A stretch of DNA of 64,000 nucleotides, taken from a virus. Positions 10,103 through 43,556 of this stretch are shown piece after piece. Location: the IMG/VR virus record IMGVR_UViG_3300018424_007835, positions 45,718-109,717 of that record, one strand, 5' to 3'. Position 1 is the stretch's first letter. The number at the start of each line of letters is the position of its first letter. A program made the translations under genes and the position numbers. The notes under the pieces were generated by a model. It worked only from the letters and a program-made list of their open reading frames with translations, was not told the DNA's origin and made no database searches.

Positions 10103-13100
10103 ATGGCAGCTATTCCTGGCCGCTGGGGCGGTCTTCGTTCAGAACCTTATAAACCTAATCCGCCTGATGCTGACCTTGATGGCATCATTCAGGAGCAGAC
10201 GTTGTGGGAGCGCCCTAAGGGGTTTGTTTTTGCGATGGTGGATGCTGCTGGTAGGTTGGCTGAGGTTGCGGATGGTGCTGATCACCCGCCTGGGGTTGAT
10301 GTGTTTAGGCAGAATTTTGTGTTGGCGAGGCGTGGCGATAACGGTGTGTTGGAGCGTGTTGATAATGCTCCGAGGCCGTCGTGGGATCGGGATGATTTGT
10401 CGGCCCGGGATAGGTTTGGTACGGTGGGTGATAGGCTTGGGACTATTGCTAGCCCGAAGTCTCCTTATGTGCCGATGGCTGCGGAGGTTGTTGATCCGCC
10501 GATTGATCGGCGGGCTGAGTTACGTAAGAGGTATCCTGGTATTTCTGATGCCGGGTTGGAGATGATGTTGTGGGAGCCCACGGATGATCCTGATGAGATT
10601 GATAGGCGGCTTGGGTTTATTGAGGATTTGTATGGTGAGGATGTTTCTACGAATTTGAGGCAGTTTTTGGATGGGGTTCCGCCGGGGGATCGGGTTGATG
10701 CTGATTTTTCTGAGATGGCCGATGATCTTCCTGAGGAACCTTTTTATGTTACTGTTTTTGATGATAATTTGGGGGATTATCCAACTGATGATGAGGGTGT
10801 GCCCGTTTTTGATCGCCGTATTGAAGATGTTGTGTATGCGTTTCGGACGCCATCGGAGGCCGCTGCGGTGTGTCCGCTTCCGGGTGCTGGTATAAATGTT
10901 GCTAGTGGTATGCCTGCTGGTTTGCGTGTGAAGCAGGAGGAGGGGGAGAAGTCGGGCTCGGGCTGTGGCCCCGGGGTGCGGCTCGGCAGGGGGGCTGCGC
11001 TAGCTGAGGCTTTTGCCCTACTCCCTGATGATAATACGGGCGATGTTCGGCTTCCCGCCGATGTAGCTGCGATGGATGCCCAGGATGCAGCTGAACAGGC
11101 GGGGGACCGTGGGCATGCTCTGCGACATTTGATTGATAAGTATAAAAGGGCGCACGCTAACAGGCAGGGGGAGGCAACGGATAAGCTTATTGGAGACATG
11201 AGCGACGACAAGGTTGCCCTGGAGATACTTCGGGAGTGGCAGCAGGACGAAAGGAATCTAAAAAAGCTTAAGGATATATTTGGCGAAGATATGACCTGGG
11301 ACCTTTTTGAGGAGATGGCGGCTAGCCAAATTGATGAGCTTTTTGAAAATGAGGAGTTTACAAACCTACTGAAATCTGAAGAGATCCAAAATTACTACAA
11401 CCACGCCCGCATGTCGTTGCGGTATAGGGTGTCAGTGCTTAGACATATGGTGCGGGAGACCAGGAGGACATCTGAAGAGGAGGGCCGCTGGGCGGGGGTG
11501 AAGAAGTTTGCGAGCATGATAGCGGTGATGTCAGCCAGGGATGACTGGGAGAACAATATGCGCAGAGCTAATGCGCTGGCTGATCTTTTGAGTAGGGACA
11601 AACCCTTTGAAGTTAGTGTTGATCGTCTTATGGCTCACACTCTTGCAAATGATGGCAGGGGGTTGCCCGGCTTGGGTACAAACTCTACACTTCAGCAGAG
11701 AGTTGATGCGATTCACGAGTTTTTATTGAAGGCGTATAAGGATAACCCAGAGGGACTCGCTGAAGCCAACGCCATGTTGGATGAGTTGATAGGAAAACTA
11801 AACGAGGTAAGTGAAGATGTTAGAATCGAATTAACTCGGGATGGAGATGGTGCCCCGAAGTTGTTGATAAAAAGACGAAACGAGGTAAGTCGAGTTTTCG
11901 AAGAGATTGATGGTGCCCCTCACAGCAAGGACCGTCCCTTGGAAACCCTTCCGAAAGGTTTCTCTTTTGAGAGCTTGAGGAAGCATCTAGATGTTTTAAC
12001 GGACGAGCAGCGTGTGAGACTAGTGGTTCAGCCTAGCGCCTGGAGCAACGAAGGCGAAGAAGAAGCGGTGGACATACCTACTTTGGAGGCGTTGATAAAC
12101 TTGCATTTGACTAGCAGCTCCGGTGCCGGGTCGATTCGGGCCGGTGGCGGGTCGGGCAATATTATTGGGGCGTTGGAAATTTTTTATGGCCATAAAACTA
12201 TAGACGAGTTGTCTGGCCCTAAAACTGATGCGTTTTTTTGGTCGTTGTTTAGTGACGAGGTTAAGCGGCGGGGTGCTGTGGATACGCATGTACTGGTCGG
12301 GATGATTGATCCAAATCGGGTGCTTACTTTCATTTTTCACAAGGATAGCGGAAAAGACCGATTAAATATTGCGCCGGAGGGGTCAGATGTCAAGATTCCG
12401 TTTGATCCTGATAACATAGATTGGCAAAATGCTTACAAGGCTAAGTATGGTGGAGATTTCGAAAAGATTGATGGTGGGTGGAGGTGGGTGCCTACTGCGG
12501 GACCGAGGGAGAAAGGTGCGGAGTTTGTAGAAGGCGAGGCGTACATTGACTTTGTGAAAAAAGACGATAACTGGGCTATGCGTGGCACTGCCCCTGCTCT
12601 GCGGGCGGAGGGGAGCGGCACGGGCAGGGCTGGCTTTAAGAACATGATTAGAGGCGGCTCCGATGTACGGATAGAGGGTCTAGAGGGTGAAAAGTTGTCC
12701 AGTGATCGGGGATGGTCTTATACCCTAGAACGGGTGCTAGAGCAGACTGCGGAGAAGCATAACGTTTCTCCTGAAGTTTTGCAGGCAGCTATTTGGGAGT
12801 ACATCCGAACTCGTAGATCTGAAGTTGTGATGGTCGAGGGTGGTTTTGATTATCCGATTAGGTCAGACCCTCATAATGCTGTACGAACTAACACTTACCT
12901 TACTGCTCCATCTGATTTAGTTAGGCGGTTTCCTAGACTTAGAACTAGGTCATCCCACGGCCCTAAGGGCGATCTGCAAAGCAAAGATATTTTGTGGCGT
13001 AGGGCAGAGCTTACGACAAGGGGTGTAATAGGTGAGCCTCTGACGGATGAGGATGTTCGTTTCCAAAGGCTGCTCAGTGTTTTAACTGAAGACGACATAA

Positions 13101-16030
13101 GAGTACTAGCCAAGTTGCGTGACCGCCGAAGAGGCTCGGATATCAACTACCCCCTCGGGAAGGACCGCCAAGTTGACTATGAAGCGATGGGATTGTCGCC
13201 GGGTCTCAAGCAGCTACTGGAGGATGATCCTGCCGTCGTGGGCCTCCTCGATGAGACGCTCATAATGTTTAACCCTGATGAGAAGTATGTTGATCGAAAC
13301 GGGGTCGAACACACTGGCGTGGAGGTTGTAATTGCCATGCTAAAAGAACACCCCCCAAACACATTTCCCGTTGGGGAGGGGGGGCTAGGGTACGTACATG
13401 TGCATACGGATGTACCTGAAGGTGAGGGCTGGTCAGCAGTTACTGATGAAGATGATAATATTCTAGGGTATTTACGTACGGCCGACATTGCATGGTTAGA
13501 GAAGGCTCGTGTTTTAACTAGGTCTTGCGGTAGTCCCATAAACGAGTCATCGGCGTTTAGGGGCATTGAGCTAAAAGATAGAGCAGGGAGTAGTAGCTGT
13601 AATATTGTGTTCGGCGGGCTCCCTAGCGGTTTGCGTATTTCTCCACACTCTGAGGTTGCTGTCCCTGAAAATTTTGCTGATATGTCCCCTGAGGCTGCAG
13701 ACGTAGTCGCCCATAATATTTTGGCTGGGAGAGATAGGTCAGAGTGGGGTGCCGAGACCCGTCTCAGTAGGGTGGGACTGTTCCAAGAGCACCCTCAGCA
13801 TCGGGGTTTTTATTTGGGGGAAGACGGAAACTTTTACGATGCTTCAGACAACATGCTGGCCGATGATGGAGACATTGTGCCGTCACCGGAGTTTTTGGAA
13901 GAGAGCGATAGGGCGCTGCGTGCCCTTTCTGAAGGTATTAGAAAGTTCGATGCCGATGCCGCTAAGCGTGCTTCTCAGCGCCAGGACAGATTGTACGGGT
14001 CTAGTTCTGATGAGCCTGAGGCGTCACCTGAACTTATAGGTCAGTTGCGGGTGGCTGAAGCGATAGGTGATAATTTTGTGGCGAGCGTTAGAGAAATGGA
14101 TGACCGGTATCGGGAACGAGTGGAACGGCCCGATGGCCGTGGTCAGTTTGTTTACGATCTTGACGAAGCGGCAAGGCGGGAGAAAATTAGAGAGATAGAA
14201 GAGGCGAGAGAGCAGTTCTCTCAGTCTCTGCAAAAGTTTTTTGATGAAGAGCGCCGTTACGATCCTGATAATCCTCCTACTGTTTTTATGAACACACGGT
14301 CTGTGGCTGCCCGTGAAGGGGCGCAACGTAGAAGTGGGGGCCGCCCACTCACTGAGGCTGAGGCACTAGAAGAGGCCGACAGGTATAGAGATATTTTTAA
14401 AGAAAGCCAGACAGCCTTGGATGAGCAGGCGAAGCGGAGTGAGGAGTGGCGCAATTCGGAGCGGCCTATGTTTATGGGACCTGACCGTTCCTATTGGTCC
14501 ACGTCGAATATTGATTCTTTATCTGACTCTGATAGGGCAAGTAGGCGTTCTGATATTCAAGAGGGTCTCGATAATCTTTGGGGGGAGTATGGGACCGGCA
14601 AGGGTGGAGATGTCACGCAAAGAGTGGGGGACAGCGGCGGAGCTTACTTCCAACCCCCTTCAGATAAAGCGCCGGAAGAGTTACTGTCTACGTTTGCTAG
14701 CGAAAAGACTAGTGTCTTAGAGGAGCAGCTTCGCACCGGCCGCCGCCGCACCGCAGGTGGAGAAGTTGAAATGTCTGACGCTGACCGCCGGGAAGCACAA
14801 ACTATTCTCGACTATTTGAAAAACACTTCCCCAGAGCAGCAGAAGAAAGATATTGTAGATTTCTTACGCAGAAATGTTGAAGATGAAGACACCGTTGTTG
14901 CCTGGCGTGCCAGCCCACAGACTATTGGTCTTGTCGCTGAGGATGGACGAATTAAGACTACGCACGAGTTGGAGTTTAGTCGCCCAACTGGGAGAACACG
15001 AGCAGACGACGTTGGTGCCACTAGCCCACCGACGATGCGTAGAGCATACGAAACTTCCATAGGGATTCCTGTTGATACCCCAGATGATGAACGTCCGGTT
15101 TCTGGGCTGGTTTCTTACGGTCCCCGCCGCCGTAGGGCTGCTGCCGATATTCTTGCTCAGCGTCAGGCTGAGTTGACTCCAGAAGAGTTTGCTCTGTATG
15201 ATGTGCGCTCCGACCCATTGTACATGCAGGCAGTTAGTGGTGCGGCGGAAGATTACGGCACAGCTATGGTGGAGTTTAAGCGTGACACGAATAGGAATGC
15301 CACGTTTGTTATCGGTGACTCTTTGAATATTGGTGGTGTTCCTGCTGGTATGGAGAATGCTTCTGATGAGGAGTTGTTGCGGATGGTGTTTGATGACACG
15401 TATCGGAATGCCCCTAATTCTGCTGATGTGACTTCGCATGACCGGTTTATGGAGATGATGATTTTGGGTCGGGATGAGGCGCTTGGTGAGGGTTATGCGG
15501 GGTCTTGGCGGTTGCCTGATTCTAAGGTGGGCCGGGATTCGGGTTATCATGAGGCTCTTTTGCCTGGTGGTAGTGGTATTGCTGATGTGGAGACTGTGTT
15601 TTTGGATGGGCAGTATAATACGCAAGTTCCTGGCTACCGTAGTGGTCGGCCTTCTTTGGAGGTGTTGCAGGAGCAGGACCGGTGGATGAGCTTGATTCCT
15701 GACGAAGAACGTGATATGCTAGAGGAGATAGTTCGACTTAGAGGTGCTGATAGTTCCGAGGTGCAGTCTGCGTTAAATGCGTGGAAGCAGCTTCTTAACC
15801 AGTTTGATGAGTCTGAGAGTCGTAGGGAAATAGAGGAGACGTTAAAGAAATTGAATCAGGACTTGAAAATTCAGTGGCTTGAAAATAGGGGTGTAAGTTT
15901 GGAGCGCCGTATTGCCGCTGCTAAGGAACGTCTGGGCACTGATGATCCTATTGATCTTCTTATGCGACGTAATTTGGAAAAGCTGTTAGAGGGTATTCGT
16001 AAGCAACACGCAAACCTGCTTGGGCGTTGA
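10103..16030 (+). CDS. Giant 1975-aa multidomain protein; possible polyvalent virion protein with ART-like C-terminus
   Basis: Function is not established. It is acidic, Arg- and Asp-rich, and lacks the hydrophobic/coiled-coil pattern of a tape measure (that gene is at 19931). Residues ~705-728 (GPKTDAFFWSLFSDEVKRRG, VDTHV) and ~889-900 (SPEVLQAAIWEY) resemble the two halves of a phage helix-hairpin-helix glycosylase-like domain (DUF7178 type) split by ~150 residues. Near the C-terminus, VVAWRAS (Arg 1602), TFVIGDSLN (Ser ~1740) and YHEALLPGG (Glu 1817) follow the R-S-E order of ADP-ribosyltransferases. Such domain chains are typical of polyvalent proteins carried in virions and injected. Both domain matches are by eye. 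Codon style differs between the ends and the middle. Confidence 0.6.
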   Translation: MAAIPGRWGGLRSEPYKPNPPDADLDGIIQEQTLWERPKGFVFAMVDAAGRLAEVADGADHPPGVDVFRQNFVLARRGDNGVLERVDNAPRPSWDRDDLSARDRFGTVGDRLGTIASPKSPYVPMAAEVVDPPIDRRAELRKRYPGISDAGLEMMLWEPTDDPDEIDRRLGFIEDLYGEDVSTNLRQFLDGVPPGDRVDADFSEMADDLPEEPFYVTVFDDNLGDYPTDDEGVPVFDRRIEDVVYAFRTPSEAAAVCPLPGAGINVASGMPAGLRVKQEEGEKSGSGCGPGVRLGRGAALAEAFALLPDDNTGDVRLPADVAAMDAQDAAEQAGDRGHALRHLIDKYKRAHANRQGEATDKLIGDMSDDKVALEILREWQQDERNLKKLKDIFGEDMTWDLFEEMAASQIDELFENEEFTNLLKSEEIQNYYNHARMSLRYRVSVLRHMVRETRRTSEEEGRWAGVKKFASMIAVMSARDDWENNMRRANALADLLSRDKPFEVSVDRLMAHTLANDGRGLPGLGTNSTLQQRVDAIHEFLLKAYKDNPEGLAEANAMLDELIGKLNEVSEDVRIELTRDGDGAPKLLIKRRNEVSRVFEEIDGAPHSKDRPLETLPKGFSFESLRKHLDVLTDEQRVRLVVQPSAWSNEGEEEAVDIPTLEALINLHLTSSSGAGSIRAGGGSGNIIGALEIFYGHKTIDELSGPKTDAFFWSLFSDEVKRRGAVDTHVLVGMIDPNRVLTFIFHKDSGKDRLNIAPEGSDVKIPFDPDNIDWQNAYKAKYGGDFEKIDGGWRWVPTAGPREKGAEFVEGEAYIDFVKKDDNWAMRGTAPALRAEGSGTGRAGFKNMIRGGSDVRIEGLEGEKLSSDRGWSYTLERVLEQTAEKHNVSPEVLQAAIWEYIRTRRSEVVMVEGGFDYPIRSDPHNAVRTNTYLTAPSDLVRRFPRLRTRSSHGPKGDLQSKDILWRRAELTTRGVIGEPLTDEDVRFQRLLSVLTEDDIRVLAKLRDRRRGSDINYPLGKDRQVDYEAMGLSPGLKQLLEDDPAVVGLLDETLIMFNPDEKYVDRNGVEHTGVEVVIAMLKEHPPNTFPVGEGGLGYVHVHTDVPEGEGWSAVTDEDDNILGYLRTADIAWLEKARVLTRSCGSPINESSAFRGIELKDRAGSSSCNIVFGGLPSGLRISPHSEVAVPENFADMSPEAADVVAHNILAGRDRSEWGAETRLSRVGLFQEHPQHRGFYLGEDGNFYDASDNMLADDGDIVPSPEFLEESDRALRALSEGIRKFDADAAKRASQRQDRLYGSSSDEPEASPELIGQLRVAEAIGDNFVASVREMDDRYRERVERPDGRGQFVYDLDEAARREKIREIEEAREQFSQSLQKFFDEERRYDPDNPPTVFMNTRSVAAREGAQRRSGGRPLTEAEALEEADRYRDIFKESQTALDEQAKRSEEWRNSERPMFMGPDRSYWSTSNIDSLSDSDRASRRSDIQEGLDNLWGEYGTGKGGDVTQRVGDSGGAYFQPPSDKAPEELLSTFASEKTSVLEEQLRTGRRRTAGGEVEMSDADRREAQTILDYLKNTSPEQQKKDIVDFLRRNVEDEDTVVAWRASPQTIGLVAEDGRIKTTHELEFSRPTGRTRADDVGATSPPTMRRAYETSIGIPVDTPDDERPVSGLVSYGPRRRRAAADILAQRQAELTPEEFALYDVRSDPLYMQAVSGAAEDYGTAMVEFKRDTNRNATFVIGDSLNIGGVPAGMENASDEELLRMVFDDTYRNAPNSADVTSHDRFMEMMILGRDEALGEGYAGSWRLPDSKVGRDSGYHEALLPGGSGIADVETVFLDGQYNTQVPGYRSGRPSLEVLQEQDRWMSLIPDEERDMLEEIVRLRGADSSEVQSALNAWKQLLNQFDESESRREIEETLKKLNQDLKIQWLENRGVSLERRIAAAKERLGTDDPIDLLMRRNLEKLLEGIRKQHANLLGR

Positions 16031-16957: not shown

Positions 16958-18508
16958 ATGCCGGGAATTAATGTCACCACTGCAGTACGCACTGGTCCTG
17001 TCGGCACTACGGACATCGTATCAGGTCAGGCGTTCATGATTGGTGCAACAGAGCGAGGGCCGGTGGATGAGCCGCTTTTGCTTAGGTCTTTTCAGGACTA
17101 CACCACGTATTATGGTAACTATCAGGCTAATTCGCTGTATATGCATGCGAAGACTTTTTTTGATGAGGGTGGTTCTCGTTTGTATGTGCGTAGGGCGCAT
17201 GCGGGTACGGCGGCTTCAGCAACGGTTGGTTCGCTTGCTTTGAATGACAGCGCATCGTCTGCGACTATGATTGTGGAGGCTAAGACTCCGGGTCCGTGGT
17301 CGGCTAATTTGACTGTTCAGGTGCAGAACAATAGTGATGATAGCAATATTGCTGCTGGTTCGTTTAGGATTTTGATTCGTCTTGATGGTGAGCTTCTTTT
17401 GTCGACTCGGGATTTGGTTGATGTGAGTGATGCTATTAATGTGATTAATTCTTCGTCTGTTAATCATTTGATTGAGGCTTCTGATGATGTTACTTCTTCT
17501 AACAACCCTGATTCGCTGGCGGCGACTGCGCTTTCTACAGGTGTAGCTCCTGCTCCTACTGATACTACGATTGCCGAGGATTTGGTGGGCACCTCTGCGG
17601 GGGCAGTTTCCCGGTATGGGGATGGGGCGTTTAGCCCAAATTTGAAGAGTGGTGCCGTTTTGGCTCCTGAGAATGGTGTGACTGCTGTTTGGGCTGCTCT
17701 GCGTGATCATGCTGTGGCGAATAATCGTATTGCGATTTGTGATTTCAGCTCGGGCGACTCAGCTGCTACTGCTCGTTCGGCTGCGGCAGCCTATTATAGT
17801 GATTCGAGTGCGCACTATATGGCGTTCTACTGGCCTTACGTAAAGGTTCCCGTTCCTAACTCTTCCGAGTTGGCTACTGGCACTTCGGCCCTGATCGGTT
17901 CCACTTTGACTATCGCCCCGTCTTCATATGCGGCTGCTGCGAGGGCACGGGCGGTTCAGGAAGCCACTGGACCTTGGCGTGCGGGTGCCGGTCAGATTTC
18001 TTCGGCTAAGACGATCACTGCGTTGGCTCAGGATGTGACGGCGGCAACGGGTGATATTATGGACAACGCCAGGGTTAATGCTTTGCGTAAGGTTGGCACT
18101 TCTATTCGGGTGTATGGTGCCCGCTCTGTGTCAAATGATGAAACGAACTGGCGGTACATCACTCAGCGAGACACCCTTAACTACATTACGGTTGGGGTTG
18201 CGGACCGAATGGAACAGTACCTGTTTGAAACGGTTGACGCACGAGGAAATCTTTTCGGACGAATTCGTGGTGCGATTAAGGCGTTCCTTGAGCCCATTCG
18301 GGTTGCGGGTGGTCTTTTTGAAGCCTACGATGATGATGGTGTGTTGCTTGATCCTGGCTACAATGTTACGGTCAACAGCACTAATAACCCGACTAGCCAG
18401 CTTGCCACCGGCCTTGTTAAGGCTGATGTTGGTGTGCGTGTGTCTGGTGTGGCGGACCTTATCAATATTACGATTACTAAGAGTAATTTGTCGGCCCCTG
18501 TTATCTAA
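16958..18508 (+). CDS. Contractile tail sheath protein
   Basis: 516 residues. Family hallmarks are the N-terminal MPGINVTTAVRTGPVGTTDI, the IGATERGPVDEPLLLRSFQD strand pair, FFDEGGSRLYVRRAHAG, and the C-terminal conserved domain (INVYG-like TSIRVYGARS, YITQRDTLNYITVGVADRME, FEAYDDDGVLLDPGYNVTVN). The sheath surrounds the tube and contracts to drive it through the cell envelope, which defines the phage as a myovirus. It is followed after 12 bases by the tube gene, the standard order. TTGGAGG precedes ATG 16958. Confidence 0.93.
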   Translation: MPGINVTTAVRTGPVGTTDIVSGQAFMIGATERGPVDEPLLLRSFQDYTTYYGNYQANSLYMHAKTFFDEGGSRLYVRRAHAGTAASATVGSLALNDSASSATMIVEAKTPGPWSANLTVQVQNNSDDSNIAAGSFRILIRLDGELLLSTRDLVDVSDAINVINSSSVNHLIEASDDVTSSNNPDSLAATALSTGVAPAPTDTTIAEDLVGTSAGAVSRYGDGAFSPNLKSGAVLAPENGVTAVWAALRDHAVANNRIAICDFSSGDSAATARSAAAAYYSDSSAHYMAFYWPYVKVPVPNSSELATGTSALIGSTLTIAPSSYAAAARARAVQEATGPWRAGAGQISSAKTITALAQDVTAATGDIMDNARVNALRKVGTSIRVYGARSVSNDETNWRYITQRDTLNYITVGVADRMEQYLFETVDARGNLFGRIRGAIKAFLEPIRVAGGLFEAYDDDGVLLDPGYNVTVNSTNNPTSQLATGLVKADVGVRVSGVADLINITITKSNLSAPVI

Positions 18509-18520
18509 GGAGTATTTTAA

Positions 18521-18970
18521 ATGGCTAAAGCAACTCAGAGGCAAATTGTCGGAGAAATTGCTCCGGTTCTAGATGTCCCAGGGCATTCCCCGGGGCCTCC
18601 TTTTCCGAAGTACTTTGCGACCGTAAGCGGCGGTGAGATTAGCGCTGCTGTTGAGAAAGTTTACGACGGTAATAGCACGTTCCCTGAGGTGCTTTGTGCT
18701 CCTTCAGAGATTGGCGATATTACTGTTAGTAAGTTTTACGACCCTGACGAGGACGCATCGAGGCTTAATCGGCTTCGGCAGCTTGTTGGTATGACTTATT
18801 ATGATGTGAAGGTGTACACGCTGAATTGCGATTTGAAGGAACCGGGTTCGGAGCGGGTGTATGCGAAGGCGCTGCTTGTTGGGCTTACTGAGCCTGATGG
18901 TGATGCTTCGTCGGGTGCCCCGGCTTCGTATTCGTTGACTTTCTCAATCAGTACTGTGGCCGCTGCCTGA
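18521..18970 (+). CDS. Tail tube protein (gp19-like)
   Basis: 149 residues, the usual size of T4 gp19-type tube subunits. It starts right after the sheath gene with AAGGAGT upstream. Features are FPKYFATVSGGEISAAVEKV, DITVSKFYDPDEDASRLNRL and YDVKVYTLNCDLKEPGSERV, ending SYSLTFSISTVAAA, which fit the beta-barrel tube fold. It forms the inner rigid channel for DNA. A probable terminator follows 32 bases after the stop. Confidence 0.87.
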   Translation: MAKATQRQIVGEIAPVLDVPGHSPGPPFPKYFATVSGGEISAAVEKVYDGNSTFPEVLCAPSEIGDITVSKFYDPDEDASRLNRLRQLVGMTYYDVKVYTLNCDLKEPGSERVYAKALLVGLTEPDGDASSGAPASYSLTFSISTVAAA

Positions 18971-19053: not shown

Positions 19054-19082
19054 TTGACGTGTGCCCAGGATTTCTGTATGAT
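19054..19082 (+). promoter_or_regulatory. Promoter of the tail assembly chaperone
   Basis: TTGACG (19054-19059), 17 bases, TATGAT (19077-19082), then six bases to an ATG at 19089. It immediately follows the terminator. Confidence 0.8.
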
Positions 19083-19088
19083 ACTGGT

Positions 19089-19157
19089 ATGCCCGGTACG
19101 CTTTGTCTGCTTACCGTTTTATATGAAAGAGGTATCAAAGATCATGAGTATGAGTGA
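19089..19157 (+). other. Possible leaderless 22-codon leader peptide
   Basis: The ATG at 19089 sits where transcription should start, as in the window's leaderless genes. It opens a 22-codon frame (MPGTLCLLTVLYERGIK...) whose TGA (19155-19157) lies just inside the chaperone gene starting at 19144. It could couple translation of the chaperone. The peptide may have no function of its own. Confidence 0.35.
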
Positions 19158-19674
19158 TGACATTTTAGAGGTTCCTTCTTCTGTGGGTGTCGTTAATCCT
19201 CCGACTGCGACACCGGCCCCGCCTACCCGAGGGTTGACGGTTTTGGATCAGTTGAAGGAAGAGATCGCTAGGGAAGTTACTCGGGACGACATTTTTATTA
19301 ATGTGCCTGAGCGTAAGGGTGTTACTGTTTCGTTTTCCCCAAATATTGCCAATGAGCAGTTGAAGGCGTGGCGGCGTAATGCTACTAATCGGAAGACCGA
19401 TGAAATGGATTCGGTTAAGTTTGCGTGTTACGTGGTTGGGCAAACGGTGACTGGTATTTATTTTAATGATGAGCTTGTGCTTGATGAGCAGGGTAACGCT
19501 GTTACGTTTGCTTCTCCGGTTATGATGGAGATGACGAGGACGGATCGGCCTCTTCCTGATGCTATTCGTGCATTTTATGGGATTGACCCACATTTGGAGG
19601 CTGTTGCTTTGAAGATTTTGGATTATGCGGGTTATGGTGAAGATGTTGATGATGAGGACCCTACGAGGGGCTAG
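19144..19674 (+). CDS. Tail assembly chaperone, short form (gpG-type)
   Basis: 176 residues. ATG 19144 is chosen because GAAAGAGG lies about 10 bases upstream; the frame is open earlier but that part lies in the promoter. A Pro/Thr-rich start (VVNPPTATPAPPTRGLTVL) precedes an alpha/beta domain (VTVSFSPNIANEQLKAWRRN, YVVGQTVTGIYFNDELVL, DRPLPDAIRAFYGIDPHLEA). Position between tube and tape measure, size, and a second overlapping frame at the 3' end are the hallmarks of the G/GT chaperone pair that coats the tape measure during tail assembly. It ends AGG GGC TAG at a probable slip site. Confidence 0.8.
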   Translation: MSMSDDILEVPSSVGVVNPPTATPAPPTRGLTVLDQLKEEIAREVTRDDIFINVPERKGVTVSFSPNIANEQLKAWRRNATNRKTDEMDSVKFACYVVGQTVTGIYFNDELVLDEQGNAVTFASPVMMEMTRTDRPLPDAIRAFYGIDPHLEAVALKILDYAGYGEDVDDEDPTRG

Positions 19675-19865
19675 TTGCGGAGTTAGCAAGTGATGTTCGC
19701 ATCATTTCTGCTGCTCGGCTAGCCGAGGCGTTTTCTACTGATCCTTTGCAAATTTTGGATTGTGATTACCATGAGTGGTTGATCCGTATTGCGGTTGCAA
19801 AAGCTTTAGCTAAGGATCGTGCGGATCAGGACAGAAAACGCCGTAATGTTAGTGGTGGCTACTGA
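19671..19865 (+). CDS. Frameshift extension of the tail assembly chaperone (T part of gpGT)
   Basis: This frame has no start codon, is open from 19656, and encodes LVAELASDVRIISAARLAEA, FSTDPLQILDCDYHEWLIRI, then a basic helix to a TGA at 19865. The DP...D..Y.WL pattern is typical of chaperone extensions. It is in the -1 frame relative to the short form. Re-reading one G at GGGGC just before the TAG (19672-19674), so that GGC in the P-site becomes GGG, joins ...DPTRG to LVAEL, giving a 240-residue GT product. A classic X-XXY-YYZ heptamer is not present. The exact slip site is inferred. Confidence 0.75.
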   Translation, partial: LVAELASDVRIISAARLAEAFSTDPLQILDCDYHEWLIRIAVAKALAKDRADQDRKRRNVSGGY

Positions 19866-19870
19866 TCTGG

Positions 19871-19920
19871 GGCCAGGAATTTCTGTAGAATAACTACAGA
19901 TGTTCCTGGCCTTAGTTTTT
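19871..19920 (+). terminator. Strong terminator between chaperone and tape measure
   Basis: GGCCAGGAA (19871-19879) pairs with TTCCTGGCC (19903-19911), and TCTGTAG (19882-19888) with CTACAGA (19894-19900); then TTAGTTTTT. The tape measure ATG is 11 bases further, leaving no space for a new promoter, so the downstream gene depends on readthrough or antitermination. Confidence 0.82.
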
Positions 19921-19930
19921 GTGAGGAAGT

Positions 19931-22900
19931 ATGGCTGCTGAAGAAAAAGTCATAATTAGGGTTGAAATAGACTCCGATATTAACAATGACCTGCTTAGCA
20001 TTGAACGACGCCTGAAGCGGCTTGAGGGTCGCCAGAAGGAGTTTAATCGTACTTCAGGAAAAACGGATGACAGGCTTCAGAGTATTGCTAAAAACAGTCG
20101 TGGTGTTGCGAAGCACTTAGACGAAGCGGCCGAAGCGACGCAAAAGCTTGATAAGAACACGAATCGGGTTAATCGTCGTTTTGGTGTTATGCGATCTGCG
20201 CTGCGGTCGGTTATTTCTCCTTTGCGAAAATTCATTACCACATTAAGTAAGATTTCTTTTATTGCCTTAGCGGGCCAGGTTGGGTTGTTTGCTGCTGCTT
20301 TAGTGGGTGTCAAGGTGGCGCTATTAACAGGTAGAGCGGCTGTTAGTTTGTATAACACTGCGTTGAAAGGGTTGTCAGTTACTGCTGCTTCTGTGGTTTC
20401 AGGTTTGGCGGTGGCTGCCGCCGCAATTAGGCAGTTTTCTGAAGTTCAGATGGCAGCCAATTTTGGGGGCGGGGCGGCAGGCCGAACTGCTGCTGCTCGA
20501 CTTAGCCGTGGTGTAACCTCACAAGTACGGGGGCTTCTCGGCTCGGAGAACACAGCGGCTATTGTTGGTGCTCTTGCCCGTGGGGGTGTGCGTGGAAATC
20601 AGAATGCTCTCATCAGGCAGTTGTTTAATATTACTGGGGGTGACGGTGCGGCGGCTCAGGCTATTGCACAGGCTTTAGCTGGCAAGGATGTGCGTCAGGC
20701 CCAGAGAGCTGTTGAAGGAGCGGCAGGCTTTCAACAGGGGTCGATGAAGGGGATGAATTTTGACTCTATGGCTGCCCTGCGTCAGTTTGTTGCAGGTGGT
20801 GGGGCTACTGCTGAAGGGTTTTCTTCGCTGGGTGACGACATGGCCCGCTCATTCATTGGCACCATTAAGACAGAATTTGCTGGTGTTGTTGGGTTGTTTG
20901 CTGATATGGGTGAACCGCTTCTTGGCCCGTTCCGTGACGCTTTTGTTCAAATATCCAGAATCATTAAAAGTGATTTGATGGGTATGATGCAGATCATACA
21001 ACGGTTTGGGGCGGAGTCGTTTGCCCCCACGTTGGTGACTATTATTGACAAGACGAGTGAGTTTATTCGCAGTAATATTGTCAATAATTTGCAAGATGTG
21101 GAGCAGATGGGTAAGAACTTTGTGGAGTTCTTCCGTAATGTGCGTGATTTTTTTGGTGGAATTGGTGATGCTTTACGTGCGATGGAGCCTGCTGCGAATG
21201 TTGTGATTGATATGTTTAGGGCTATGGGTGGGGCGGCTGGTGGGCGTGGGTTGTTTAGGGAGTTTAGGGATTTGATTGTTGAGAATGCTGAGGCGTTTGA
21301 GAATTTTGGTGCGGGTATCGGTAACGTTATTGGGGCTGTTTTTGATTTGTTGAAGGGCGGCCAGGCGGGGTTCTTTAATAGTTTGGATCGCATATCTGCG
21401 GTTTTGAATACGGTTGCGTCTGAGTTGGTTCCGGCTATTGGTGAGATTTTGAATGCGATAACTCCTGCGTTGGAGAAGTTGCCTGATTTGGTTTCGGCAA
21501 TTGCTGATGGTTTGGAATTGATTGCGCCTCCGATTGAGTTGTTGGCTAATGCTGTGGCTATGTTGGTTCAGGTTTTGGGGGGGATGGGCGGCATTGGTGG
21601 GTTGTTGGCGCTGGGTGGCTTTGGGGCGTTTAGGAGCTTTAGGGGAGAAGCGCAGCGGAGAGGGATGACCAACCGGATGCTTCTTCAAGAAAGGCAAAGG
21701 AATTTCAGACGGAACGGTGGATTTAGGGGGCTCGTGCGAAGCCAGGGCCTCGGTGGGGTCACCTCTGCAATGGGAATGACGGGGATCGGTCTGGGGCTTA
21801 CGGCTGTGAGTGGGGCGTATGAAAGTGGTAGTACTTCTATGGGCACATTAGGTGGTGCGGCCGGTGGGGCAATGCTTGGTTTCTCTATTGCTGGCCCTCT
21901 TGGTGCTGCCGCTGGGGCTTTAATTGGGGGTATTGCAGGGTACCTTGCAGGGAAGGCGGGTCAGGCCAAGATTGCTGAGGCGACAGCGACGGCAATGCAA
22001 GAACACATCGGGAGCTTACGACTAATAGGCACTCCTGGGGCACTGACGATTGTGGAAACAAAGCAGGCGATTACTGATTTAAGCACACACCGGGATATTA
22101 TTTCCCGGGCTAGGCAGAATCCTGGGATAGAGGATCTTAGGCAAGTTGCGGAAGATATGCGTACCACGACTGACGGCATAGACTTAGCTAGTGCGTTAGA
22201 CACTACTTTTGCTGGCCCGGAGGTAGCTCTTGAAGCAGCTCTGGTGGCCGCAGAGTTTGGCACGACGAACGGTGGGGTTGACATTCGGACTGAGCATATG
22301 AAAAGAGCGCAGATAATTATGGGGCAACGGGCGCAGATGGCGGGCGGTGGCCCGGGGGGTTTGACTGGTGGCATAGGTGCTACCCTGATCGAGGGGGAGT
22401 TCTACCAGGAAGTGCTTAGGTCGGCTGAGATGCTGAAGACCTTTGACAGCCCAGAGTGGAGCGAACTGACAGGTACCCTGCAAGAGCTAGGTATTATTGG
22501 GGAGCACTTTGATGATGAAGAAATATATAAGAATTTACCGCAATACTTGGAGGAGGCCGATGCGGCAATCGGTCGCCTTGAGCAAAATGTTAGAAACTTT
22601 GATAGTAATGTAGGTATGTTGCAAAGCACGCTAGGGCTGACCTCAGAAGCGGTTCAAAGTCTAGCTGCTGATTTAGGGATAAATCTACAAGGAAGGCTAG
22701 ACCAACAAGGTACAGCTTTGCTGATGCAGGCTGCGCTTAATCCAATGGACCGCAATCAGACGTTTTTGCCTGATCTTTCCACGTCTGCTTTGGGGGTGCA
22801 GGAGAGGAACGCTACGGCTAGTGCCATGCTTGAGGCTATTGCTGGGGCAGAGGCAGGCGATCTTAATACGGGTATGATTTCGGATGCGATTCAGGCGTTT

Positions 22901-23623
22901 GCTGCGTATGAGATTGCTTTGGGTAATTCGCCTGATTTGGCTGCTCTTTCTGGTGTTTTTGAGTTGGAGGAGAAGCTACCTCAGCTTACTGGTGGGGATC
23001 CTGAGAAGGAACGTATTCTTCGGGGGCAGATTGAGTCGGCGTATGGGTCGACGTTCCGTCAGATGGAGGAGGAGTATGGTATAGATGCGGGTAGGCTTCG
23101 TACAATTTACGACGAGGCTGGGGGTGGGAGCCGTGGTATTACAGCGCTGGATACTACGCTGGATCAGCGCAAAGATTTTATGGATGCGATTGCTGGTACT
23201 GGGGGGATGGCATTTAAGGAGAGAATGTCGGTTCTGGACGAGGCGTCGGGCGGTGAATTGTATAAGAGTCGCTCACTTCAAGATGCATTCCTGAACAACT
23301 TAGCTACGGAGGGCCGGATGCAGGCTGAACGAGCTTTGCAAGGTGGGACTAGCCTTGCAGACGTAATTGACGCTGCAGCGGGGCAACAATATGGTGAATT
23401 TGATCAGCAGCAGTTTATGACCGACTTTATTTCTATGGAGGCTCCGTTGGATTTAGCACGAAACGACCTGTTATCAAATATTAAAGCTGCCATAGATATG
23501 ACGACAGAGGCAGTCAACGGGATTAACGTGTCTGACCCAGAACGAGGAGGGACAGTCACCGGGATTATAGGTGGTTCGATAGGCGCTAAGGTCGGTGCTG
23601 GCTCGATGAGGCGCTTACCTTAG
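19931..23623 (+). CDS. Tape measure protein
   Basis: 1230 residues, which at about 1.5 A per residue would correspond to a tail of roughly 180 nm. The N-terminal ~100 residues are a charged coiled coil (LLSIERRLKRLEGRQKEF), followed by hydrophobic helices at ~108-175 (ISFIALAGQVGLFAAALVGV and later), further amphipathic helices, Gly-rich hydrophobic stretches near 540-570 and a glycine-zipper segment at ~640-675 (LGAAAGALIGGIAGYLAGKA). The rest is helical. It sits directly after the chaperone pair and before the hub genes, as expected. GAGGAAG precedes ATG 19931. Confidence 0.9.
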   Translation: MAAEEKVIIRVEIDSDINNDLLSIERRLKRLEGRQKEFNRTSGKTDDRLQSIAKNSRGVAKHLDEAAEATQKLDKNTNRVNRRFGVMRSALRSVISPLRKFITTLSKISFIALAGQVGLFAAALVGVKVALLTGRAAVSLYNTALKGLSVTAASVVSGLAVAAAAIRQFSEVQMAANFGGGAAGRTAAARLSRGVTSQVRGLLGSENTAAIVGALARGGVRGNQNALIRQLFNITGGDGAAAQAIAQALAGKDVRQAQRAVEGAAGFQQGSMKGMNFDSMAALRQFVAGGGATAEGFSSLGDDMARSFIGTIKTEFAGVVGLFADMGEPLLGPFRDAFVQISRIIKSDLMGMMQIIQRFGAESFAPTLVTIIDKTSEFIRSNIVNNLQDVEQMGKNFVEFFRNVRDFFGGIGDALRAMEPAANVVIDMFRAMGGAAGGRGLFREFRDLIVENAEAFENFGAGIGNVIGAVFDLLKGGQAGFFNSLDRISAVLNTVASELVPAIGEILNAITPALEKLPDLVSAIADGLELIAPPIELLANAVAMLVQVLGGMGGIGGLLALGGFGAFRSFRGEAQRRGMTNRMLLQERQRNFRRNGGFRGLVRSQGLGGVTSAMGMTGIGLGLTAVSGAYESGSTSMGTLGGAAGGAMLGFSIAGPLGAAAGALIGGIAGYLAGKAGQAKIAEATATAMQEHIGSLRLIGTPGALTIVETKQAITDLSTHRDIISRARQNPGIEDLRQVAEDMRTTTDGIDLASALDTTFAGPEVALEAALVAAEFGTTNGGVDIRTEHMKRAQIIMGQRAQMAGGGPGGLTGGIGATLIEGEFYQEVLRSAEMLKTFDSPEWSELTGTLQELGIIGEHFDDEEIYKNLPQYLEEADAAIGRLEQNVRNFDSNVGMLQSTLGLTSEAVQSLAADLGINLQGRLDQQGTALLMQAALNPMDRNQTFLPDLSTSALGVQERNATASAMLEAIAGAEAGDLNTGMISDAIQAFAAYEIALGNSPDLAALSGVFELEEKLPQLTGGDPEKERILRGQIESAYGSTFRQMEEEYGIDAGRLRTIYDEAGGGSRGITALDTTLDQRKDFMDAIAGTGGMAFKERMSVLDEASGGELYKSRSLQDAFLNNLATEGRMQAERALQGGTSLADVIDAAAGQQYGEFDQQQFMTDFISMEAPLDLARNDLLSNIKAAIDMTTEAVNGINVSDPERGGTVTGIIGGSIGAKVGAGSMRRLP

Positions 23624-43466: not shown

Positions 43467-43473
43467 GGGTTTG

Positions 43474-43556
43474 CCCCTGTGGCGAAATTGGCAAACGCAG
43501 CGGACTCAAAATCCGTGGCCCGTTGGGCTTGTGGGTTCGATTCCCACCAGGGGTAC
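43474..43556 (+). tRNA. tRNA-Leu(CAA)
   Basis: Acceptor GCCCCTG (43474-43480) pairs with CAGGGGT (43549-43555), discriminator A at 43556. D-arm GCG...CGC with GG in the loop. Anticodon stem GCGGA/TCCGT, loop CTCAAAA, anticodon CAA at 43508-43510 (reads UUG). A long variable arm (GCCC/GGGC) marks a class II tRNA, and the T-arm is GTGGG-TTCGATT-CCCAC. CCA is not encoded. UUG leucine codons are very common in the phage genes, so it may relieve codon mismatch with the host. Confidence 0.93.

What the first reader, a model, noticed from the sequence alone, without database searches (positions are those of the whole stretch)
19144..19865. Probable -1 frameshift at a stop codon producing the long tail chaperone
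The short frame ends AGG GGC TAG. The -1 frame is open from 19656 and encodes 64 residues after the slip, with the pattern of a chaperone extension and no start codon of its own. A slip of the Gly tRNA from GGC to GGG beside the TAG would join them. It lacks a standard slippery heptamer, so it may use a stop-codon-assisted single-tRNA slip.
Basis: partly seen in the sequence, partly recalled or inferred. Interest (0 to 1): 0.6.

Follow-up and report, generated by a model that had tools for sequence, protein, structure and literature searches.

The report
Phage tail-chaperone frameshift at CCU codon
A phage gene very probably makes a short and a long version of a tail-building helper protein because ribosomes sometimes slip back one base; comparison with about 87 distinct relatives puts the slip on a single proline codon followed by an RNA hairpin, not at the stop codon as first proposed, and shows the same unlabelled signal in cultured Arthrobacter phages.

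Summary
The short tail-chaperone frame (19144-19674, PHROG 5088) ends AGG GGC TAG. The -1 frame is open 19656-19865 and is under strong purifying selection. A programmed -1 frameshift giving a 240-aa long chaperone is well supported. The proposed slip point is not.

GGC precedes the stop in only 32 of 87; L089 lost GGC TAG yet keeps the -1 protein. Just after CCT the -1 residue stays Tyr while the 0-frame residue changes (Thr to Met/Ile), so the new frame is already being read there. A hairpin starts 5-6 nt downstream, more stable than synonymous recodings (window z -3.1).

The likely mechanism is tRNA-Pro slipping from CCU to CCC on a Z_ZZN tetramer, a class shown by others to be weakly shift-prone in E. 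coli when a strong stimulator is present. Two clades extend it to A_AAC_CCU; Gordonia and Brevibacterium phages have CCC_UUU_R. Cultured Arthrobacter phages carry the same site unannotated. This is a new variant of a known kind; no frameshifting was measured.

The parts
19144..19674 (+). Short tail assembly chaperone (gpG-like), 176 aa, 0 frame, stop TAG at 19672-19674
   Evidence: PHROG 5088 'tail assembly chaperone' E 6e-18; AlphaFold2 pLDDT 81.7; best PDB fold match HK97 tail assembly chaperone 2OB9, weak, E 0.18, prob 0.72
19656..19865 (+). -1 frame, open region and stop (TGA 19863-19865). Read from the slip (Pro at 19659) it gives a 68-residue helical domain; fused product about 240 aa
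   Evidence: purifying selection; homologous to annotated Gordonia and unannotated Arthrobacter extensions; AlphaFold2 pLDDT 90.7, helices from residue 3 of the -1 reading
19659..19662 (+). Slip site C_CCU (0 frame GAC CCT ACG; -1 frame GGA CCC TAC): tRNA-Pro re-pairs CCU to CCC
   Evidence: invariant C_CCY in 87/87 distinct relatives; control Pro codons not restricted to CCY; one of two invariant protein columns among 19 divergent chaperones
19669..19677 (+). 5' arm of the predicted stimulatory stem (GGCUAGUUG), contains the 0-frame stop; starts 6 nt after CCU
   Evidence: 60-nt fold -28.2 kcal/mol, z -3.07 against synonymous recodings
19716..19724 (+). 3' arm of the predicted stimulatory stem in this phage (CGGCUAGCC), enclosing an inner hairpin; most close relatives instead use a local 3' arm (AACUAGCC)
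19670..19687 (+). Alternative local hairpin GCUAGUU-GCGG-AGUUAGC, the counterpart of the strong 8-9 bp hairpin of L006/L016; weak here (-4 kcal/mol)
18521..18970 (+). Tail tube protein (context)
   Evidence: PHROG 5102, E 5e-26
16958..18508 (+). Tail sheath protein (context; contractile tail)
   Evidence: PHROG 23, E 1e-39
19931..23623 (+). Tape measure protein (context; gene order tube, chaperone, tape measure)
   Evidence: PHROG 167, E 2e-13

Best explanation
This is the tail assembly chaperone pair of a contractile-tailed phage, probably of Actinomycetota. Most ribosomes stop at TAG 19672 and make the 176-aa short chaperone. A minority slip back one base when tRNA-Pro reads CCU in the sequence GAC CCU ACG (19657-19665). 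The tRNA re-pairs with the overlapping CCC, trading a G-U wobble for a G-C pair if a GGG anticodon is used. The ribosome is held by an RNA hairpin that begins 5-6 nt downstream and contains the 0-frame stop. Translation continues in the -1 frame for 67 more codons and gives a long (240 aa, gpGT-like) chaperone with a C-terminal helical domain. The motif is a Z_ZZN tetramer (C_CCU), not an X_XXZ_ZZN heptamer. Shown by comparison: the conserved -1 frame, the invariant slip codon and the downstream structure. Inferred: that frameshifting occurs and at what rate, that tRNA-Pro is in the A site (or leaving it) when it slips, and the role of the long form in recruiting tube or sheath onto the tape measure.
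For: C_CCY with an open -1 frame in 238/238 usable loci, 87 distinct, slip codon CCT 85 and CCC 2, never CCA/CCG (slip-codon counts); elsewhere in the same genes all four Pro codons are used, and the conserved [DE]PH motif uses all of them. C_CCY occurs at 0.5% of upstream codons. In five distinct sequences ACG is replaced by ATG or ATT, changing the 0-frame residue while -1 Tyr is kept. L089 loses GGC TAG but keeps -1 GLV. DalanDe (L009) has a -1 stop (TGA) immediately before CCC, so its slip cannot be earlier. -1 extension pN/pS 0.30. Structure peaks at +6 from CCU, mean z -1.83 over 55 representatives against about 0 in flanking windows, and persists against synonymous recoding (60-nt window mean z -1.36, window itself -3.07, control region -0.10). 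Local helix paired in 84% of cells against at most 48% when slid, covariation score reached by 3/500 shuffles. 19 distinct sequences hold the canonical heptamer A_AAC_CCU and 5 hold CCC_UUU_R, all using the same CCU. C_CCU = C_CCC rank among the six most shift-prone tetramers in E. coli with the IS3 pseudoknot at a 5-nt spacer (PMC4066793).
Against: No expression data. The two tRNA sites cannot be told apart by sequence alone. In the window the local hairpin is weak (z -0.6) and only the larger fold is significant. Only one base pair shows changes on both sides (4 cells). With a GAC codon in the P site the P-site tRNA re-pairs poorly on GGA. C_CCU is a low-efficiency tetramer in E. coli (exact value not given in the text read), and the real host's tRNAs are unknown. 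The representatives are related, so the combined p-values are only indicative.
Confidence: 0.86

Rival explanations
1. One reading: tRNA-Gly slips from GGC to GGG in the P site while TAG waits in the A site (stop-assisted single-tRNA slip).
For: G_GGC is present in the window and in 34 of 87 distinct relatives; it joins the two frames; a stop codon is a slow A-site codon.
Against: Absent from most relatives that keep the same -1 protein; L089 lacks it; -1 residues upstream of it (P-Y) are conserved; the conserved hairpin includes it instead of following it; G_GGC is not among the responsive tetramers in E. coli (PMC4066793). Within the close clade GGC TAG is explained by -1 coding of G-L-V (GGG CTA GTT).
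Confidence: 0.05
2. The -1 segment is a separate small gene with its own start, not a fusion.
For: It is annotated as a separate small gene in Brevibacterium phage Cantare (gene 23) and Arthrobacter phages Sicarius2 and Wyborn (gene 19). Some phages, e.g. Microbacterium subcluster EA phages, are described with separately expressed chaperone ORFs (PMC7302621).
Against: The conserved part (PYE..L..) lies upstream of any possible start: about 30 codons in the window. The C_CCY and downstream structure would be unexplained. Annotated Gordonia homologues are joined CDS features, in GMA6 with a frameshift note.
Confidence: 0.04
3. The same C_CCU pivot, but with a different timing: tRNA-Pro slips in the P site while ACG is awaited, rather than in the A site or during translocation. 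(This is a variant of the best explanation, so its confidence overlaps with it.)
For: Gordonia and Cantare sites place CCU in the P-site position of a heptamer (C_CCU_UUR). The A-site codon is often ACG (68 of 87).
Against: Two clades instead extend the 5' side to A_AAC_CCU, which puts CCU in the A-site position. The spacer of 5-6 nt from CCU to the stem matches the A-site arrangement used for Z_ZZN motifs. ACG is also favoured by -1 coding of Glu.
Confidence: 0.25
4. A dead or damaged gene, an assembly indel, or transcriptional slippage.
For: None found beyond the frame break itself.
Against: Same junction in contigs from several metagenomes and in cultured isolates; -1 frame under selection; no run of A/T/G long enough for polymerase slippage at the site (sequence).
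Confidence: 0.01

Closest known systems
Lambda gpG/gpGT-type tail assembly chaperone -1 programmed frameshift (Xu, Hendrix and Duda 2004; review PMC5009743)
   Same: Gene order tube, chaperone, tape measure; short form plus a rarer -1 extended form; [quoted passage not shown]
   Different: Lambda uses a canonical G_GGA_AAG heptamer (from general knowledge); here only a C_CCU tetramer, with a downstream hairpin.
Gordonia phages GMA6, DalanDe, UBSmoodge, ChisanaKitsune (Bendigovirus, Chidieberevirus and relatives) chaperone pair
   Same: Homologous short form (about 30% identity) and extension (hhalign probability 97); annotated as joined by frameshift; the same Pro CCU at the slip.
   Different: They carry the canonical heptamer C_CCU_UUG.
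Arthrobacter phages Vibaki, Hirko, EastWest, Sicarius2, Wyborn chaperone
   Same: GAC CCT ACC with a homologous -1 extension: the same tetramer-only site.
   Different: Deposited as a single chaperone gene with no joined product.
Z_ZZN tetramer -1 frameshifting in IS3/IS1-family insertion sequences (Sharma et al. 2014, PMC4066793)
   Same: Single-tRNA tetramer, about 5-nt spacer and strong 3' RNA structure; C_CCU and C_CCC measured as shift-prone.
   Different: Natural IS tetramers are mainly A_AAG, U_UUY and A_AAA; here C_CCY is fixed in a phage tail gene.
PRFect motif set for phage frameshifts (PMC10885494)
   Same: Covers tail chaperone frameshifts in SEA-PHAGES genomes.
   Different: None of its eight backward motif names, as listed in the text, appears to fit CCCUACG, so such sites could be missed; the tool itself was not run.

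Membership tests
Tail assembly chaperone pair of the gpG/gpGT kind | Short form homologous to known tail assembly chaperones | tested here: met
   PHROG 5088 E 6e-18; tblastn to annotated Gordonia chaperones, E 3e-16 at best; weak fold match to HK97 chaperone 2OB9
Tail assembly chaperone pair of the gpG/gpGT kind | Lies between the tail tube gene and the tape measure gene | tested here: met
Tail assembly chaperone pair of the gpG/gpGT kind | Conserved overlapping -1 frame without its own start, coding a C-terminal extension under selection | tested here: met
Tail assembly chaperone pair of the gpG/gpGT kind | Both products made at a set ratio and needed for tail assembly | not testable with these tools
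   needs mass spectrometry or genetics
Canonical X_XXZ_ZZN heptamer -1 frameshift | XXXZZZN in frame at the slip | tested here: not met
   window G_GAC_CCU; no heptamer in its slip window. Met in two AAC clades (A_AAC_CCU) and in Gordonia/Cantare (CCC_UUU_R)
Z_ZZN tetramer -1 frameshift | Z_ZZN in frame at the slip, conserved | tested here: met
   C_CCY 87/87 distinct sequences; synonymous control
Z_ZZN tetramer -1 frameshift | Downstream RNA stimulator at a short spacer | tested here: met
   (prediction only; stem most often starts 5-6 nt after CCU)
Z_ZZN tetramer -1 frameshift | Measured frameshifting at the motif | not testable with these tools
   E. coli data exist for the motif in another context (PMC4066793)
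   GGC before the stop in 32/87; stop 2-7 codons away from CCY; L089 counter-example

The most novel reading that the evidence does not exclude
A large group of mostly uncultured phages, with cultured Arthrobacter members, relies on one tRNA-Pro slipping at a bare C_CCU tetramer plus a hairpin as the standing signal for its tail chaperone. That pivot codon has stayed fixed while the flanks have drifted into full heptamers on the 5' side (A_AAC_CCU, in two clades) or, in relatives, on the 3' side (CCC_UUU_R).
Probability: 0.7. Interest if true: 0.55.

Novelty: new variant of a known kind. Interest (0 to 1): 0.45.

Why it matters
Tail-chaperone frameshifting is known, but the signals searched for are mostly heptamers. 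Here a whole phage group appears to use a proline tetramer that published motif lists seem not to cover, and cultured phages have been annotated without it. It gives a natural evolutionary series in which one tRNA pivot stays fixed while the second slipping codon is gained or lost, so the long-standing question of single- versus double-tRNA slippage can be tested with ready laboratory phages.

Tried and rejected
Megablast of the region against named phages: no match. Slip at GGC TAG: rejected by the relatives. Independent start of the -1 frame: rejected (conserved residues lie upstream of any start). Assembly error: rejected (same junction in other contigs and isolates). Local hairpin as the stimulator in the window: weak on its own (z -0.6; not significant against synonymous recoding in the 44-nt window); the larger 60-nt fold is the better candidate. 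Fold search with the -1 domain: nothing; PHROGs and Pfam: nothing for the extension. Wide alignment A2 was too diverse to scan with. Genome contigs gave one weak host hint only (L173, Actinomycetota MAG). Paper searches for a CCCTAC or CCCU slip in a phage tail gene found no precedent in the held library; the Xu 2004 paper itself was not looked up.

Full report
Setting. The window is part of a 109.7-kb IMG/VR virus record. Around the finding lie a tail sheath (16958-18508), tail tube (18521-18970), the chaperone frame (19144-19674) and a 1230-aa tape measure protein (19931-23623), each matched by PHROGs. This is the usual place of the tail assembly chaperones in a contractile-tailed phage. The short frame matches PHROG 5088 'tail assembly chaperone' (E 6e-18). 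Its AlphaFold2 model (pLDDT 81.7) finds the HK97 chaperone 2OB9 as the best PDB match, weakly (E 0.18, prob 0.72).

Observation. In 175 pairs of relatives the part of the -1 frame beyond the 0-frame stop has pN/pS 0.30, against 1.21 and 1.89 in the other two frames; for the window against L006, pS is 0.76 and pN 0.13. Modelled from the Pro of the slip, the extension is a confident helical domain (pLDDT 90.7). It is homologous to the extension annotated as a frameshift product in Gordonia phages (hhalign probability 97, E 1e-10) and to an unannotated extension in Arthrobacter phages (E 1e-11).

Where the slip is. Relatives were collected by chaperone, tube and sheath searches and from named phages. 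In all 238 usable loci (87 distinct sequences) a C_CCY proline codon lies in the permitted slip window, 2-7 codons before the 0-frame stop: CCT in 85 and CCC in 2, never CCA or CCG. The base before it is always C. In the same genes all four Pro codons are common, and the conserved [DE]PH motif uses all of them. Locus L089 reads CCT ACG AAG GGT TGG TAG, so GGC TAG is gone while the -1 product PYEGLV is kept; GGC TAG elsewhere is what the -1 codons GGG CTA GTT (G-L-V) look like in frame 0. Directly after CCT, ACG is replaced by ATG or ATT in five distinct sequences; this changes the 0-frame residue but leaves the -1 residue Tyr. In Gordonia phage DalanDe a -1 stop (TGA) abuts CCC, so the slip cannot be earlier. 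Together these place frame entry at C_CCY, 19659-19662 in the window.

Downstream structure. In 55 representatives (under 85% identical) the 42 nt starting 6 nt after the first base of CCY folds better than dinucleotide shuffles (mean z -1.83), while windows upstream and further downstream are near zero. The sequences of the stems differ between clades, from GGGCUAGUU/AACUAGCCC in L016 to a 12-bp stem in L143 and L144. Against synonymous recoding of the -1 codons beyond the stop the effect persists (44 nt: mean z -0.97; 60 nt: mean z -1.36, control regions -0.10). Stems most often begin 5-6 nt after CCY. In the window the local hairpin is weak (-4.0 kcal/mol, z -0.6), but a larger fold pairing 19669-19677 with 19716-19724 reaches -28.2 kcal/mol (z -3.1). 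Covariation in the close clade is modest: 84% of cells paired against at most 48% for slid controls, but only one pair changed on both sides.

Mechanism. Sharma et al. 2014 (PMC4066793) measured all Z_ZZN tetramers in E. coli. With the IS3 pseudoknot at a 5-nt spacer, C_CCU and C_CCC are among six clearly shift-prone tetramers (range of the six 0.26-5.6%), C_CCA and C_CCG are weaker, and tetramers need a strong stimulator. The natural pattern here (CCT or CCC only, hairpin at 5-6 nt) fits that rule closely. The best reading is that tRNA-Pro, in the A site or leaving it, re-pairs from CCU to CCC. Nineteen distinct sequences have AAC before CCT, which makes a full heptamer A_AAC_CCU, and on a tree of 55 representatives this label falls in two separate clades among GAC tetramer sites. 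Gordonia phages and Brevibacterium phage Cantare instead have CCC_UUU_R, with CCU as the P-site codon. Whether the tRNA slips in the A or P site in the tetramer clade is not settled. No frameshifting was measured.

Unannotated relatives. Arthrobacter phages Vibaki, Hirko, EastWest, Sicarius2 and Wyborn carry GAC CCT ACC and the homologous -1 extension but are deposited with a single chaperone gene. In Sicarius2, Wyborn and Cantare the tail of the extension is annotated as a separate small gene. PRFect (PMC10885494) names eight backward motifs in its text; none appears to fit CCCUACG, though the tool was not run.

Novelty. Frameshifted tail chaperones are known (review PMC5009743) and tetramers are known from insertion sequences. 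The use of C_CCU as the fixed pivot of a tail-chaperone frameshift across a phage group was not found in the papers searched; the library lacks many subscription papers. This is a new variant of a known kind.

Noticed in passing
window 19867-19915: Strong inverted repeat GGCCAGGAATTTCTGTAG-AATAA-CTACAGATGTTCCTGGCC followed by T-rich sequence, between the chaperone stop and the tape measure start. By eye, relatives keep GGAATTTCTRTAnAAT-like sequence there. Possible terminator, processing site or promoter.
   Followed up: partly
window 19054-19082: Promoter-like TTGACG-N17-TATGAT upstream of the chaperone gene, sharing AGGATTTCTGTANNAT with the element at 19876-19891; the motif occurs 3 times in the window with up to 2 mismatches, 0.35 expected.
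   Followed up: partly
L168 2594-2701; L167 2543-2671; L171 2043-2171: Small genes annotated after the chaperone in phages Cantare, Sicarius2 and Wyborn are the C-terminal part of the -1 extension, probably misannotated.
   Followed up: yes
L170 1958-2140: EastWest gene 19, annotated after the chaperone, lies in a third reading frame over the -1 extension and looks spurious.
   Followed up: partly
window 10103-16030: A 1975-aa single open frame upstream of the tail genes, size unusual; not examined.
   Followed up: no
window 43473-43556: A tRNA-Leu (CAA) gene, the only tRNA found in the window; no phage-coded tRNA-Pro there.
   Followed up: no
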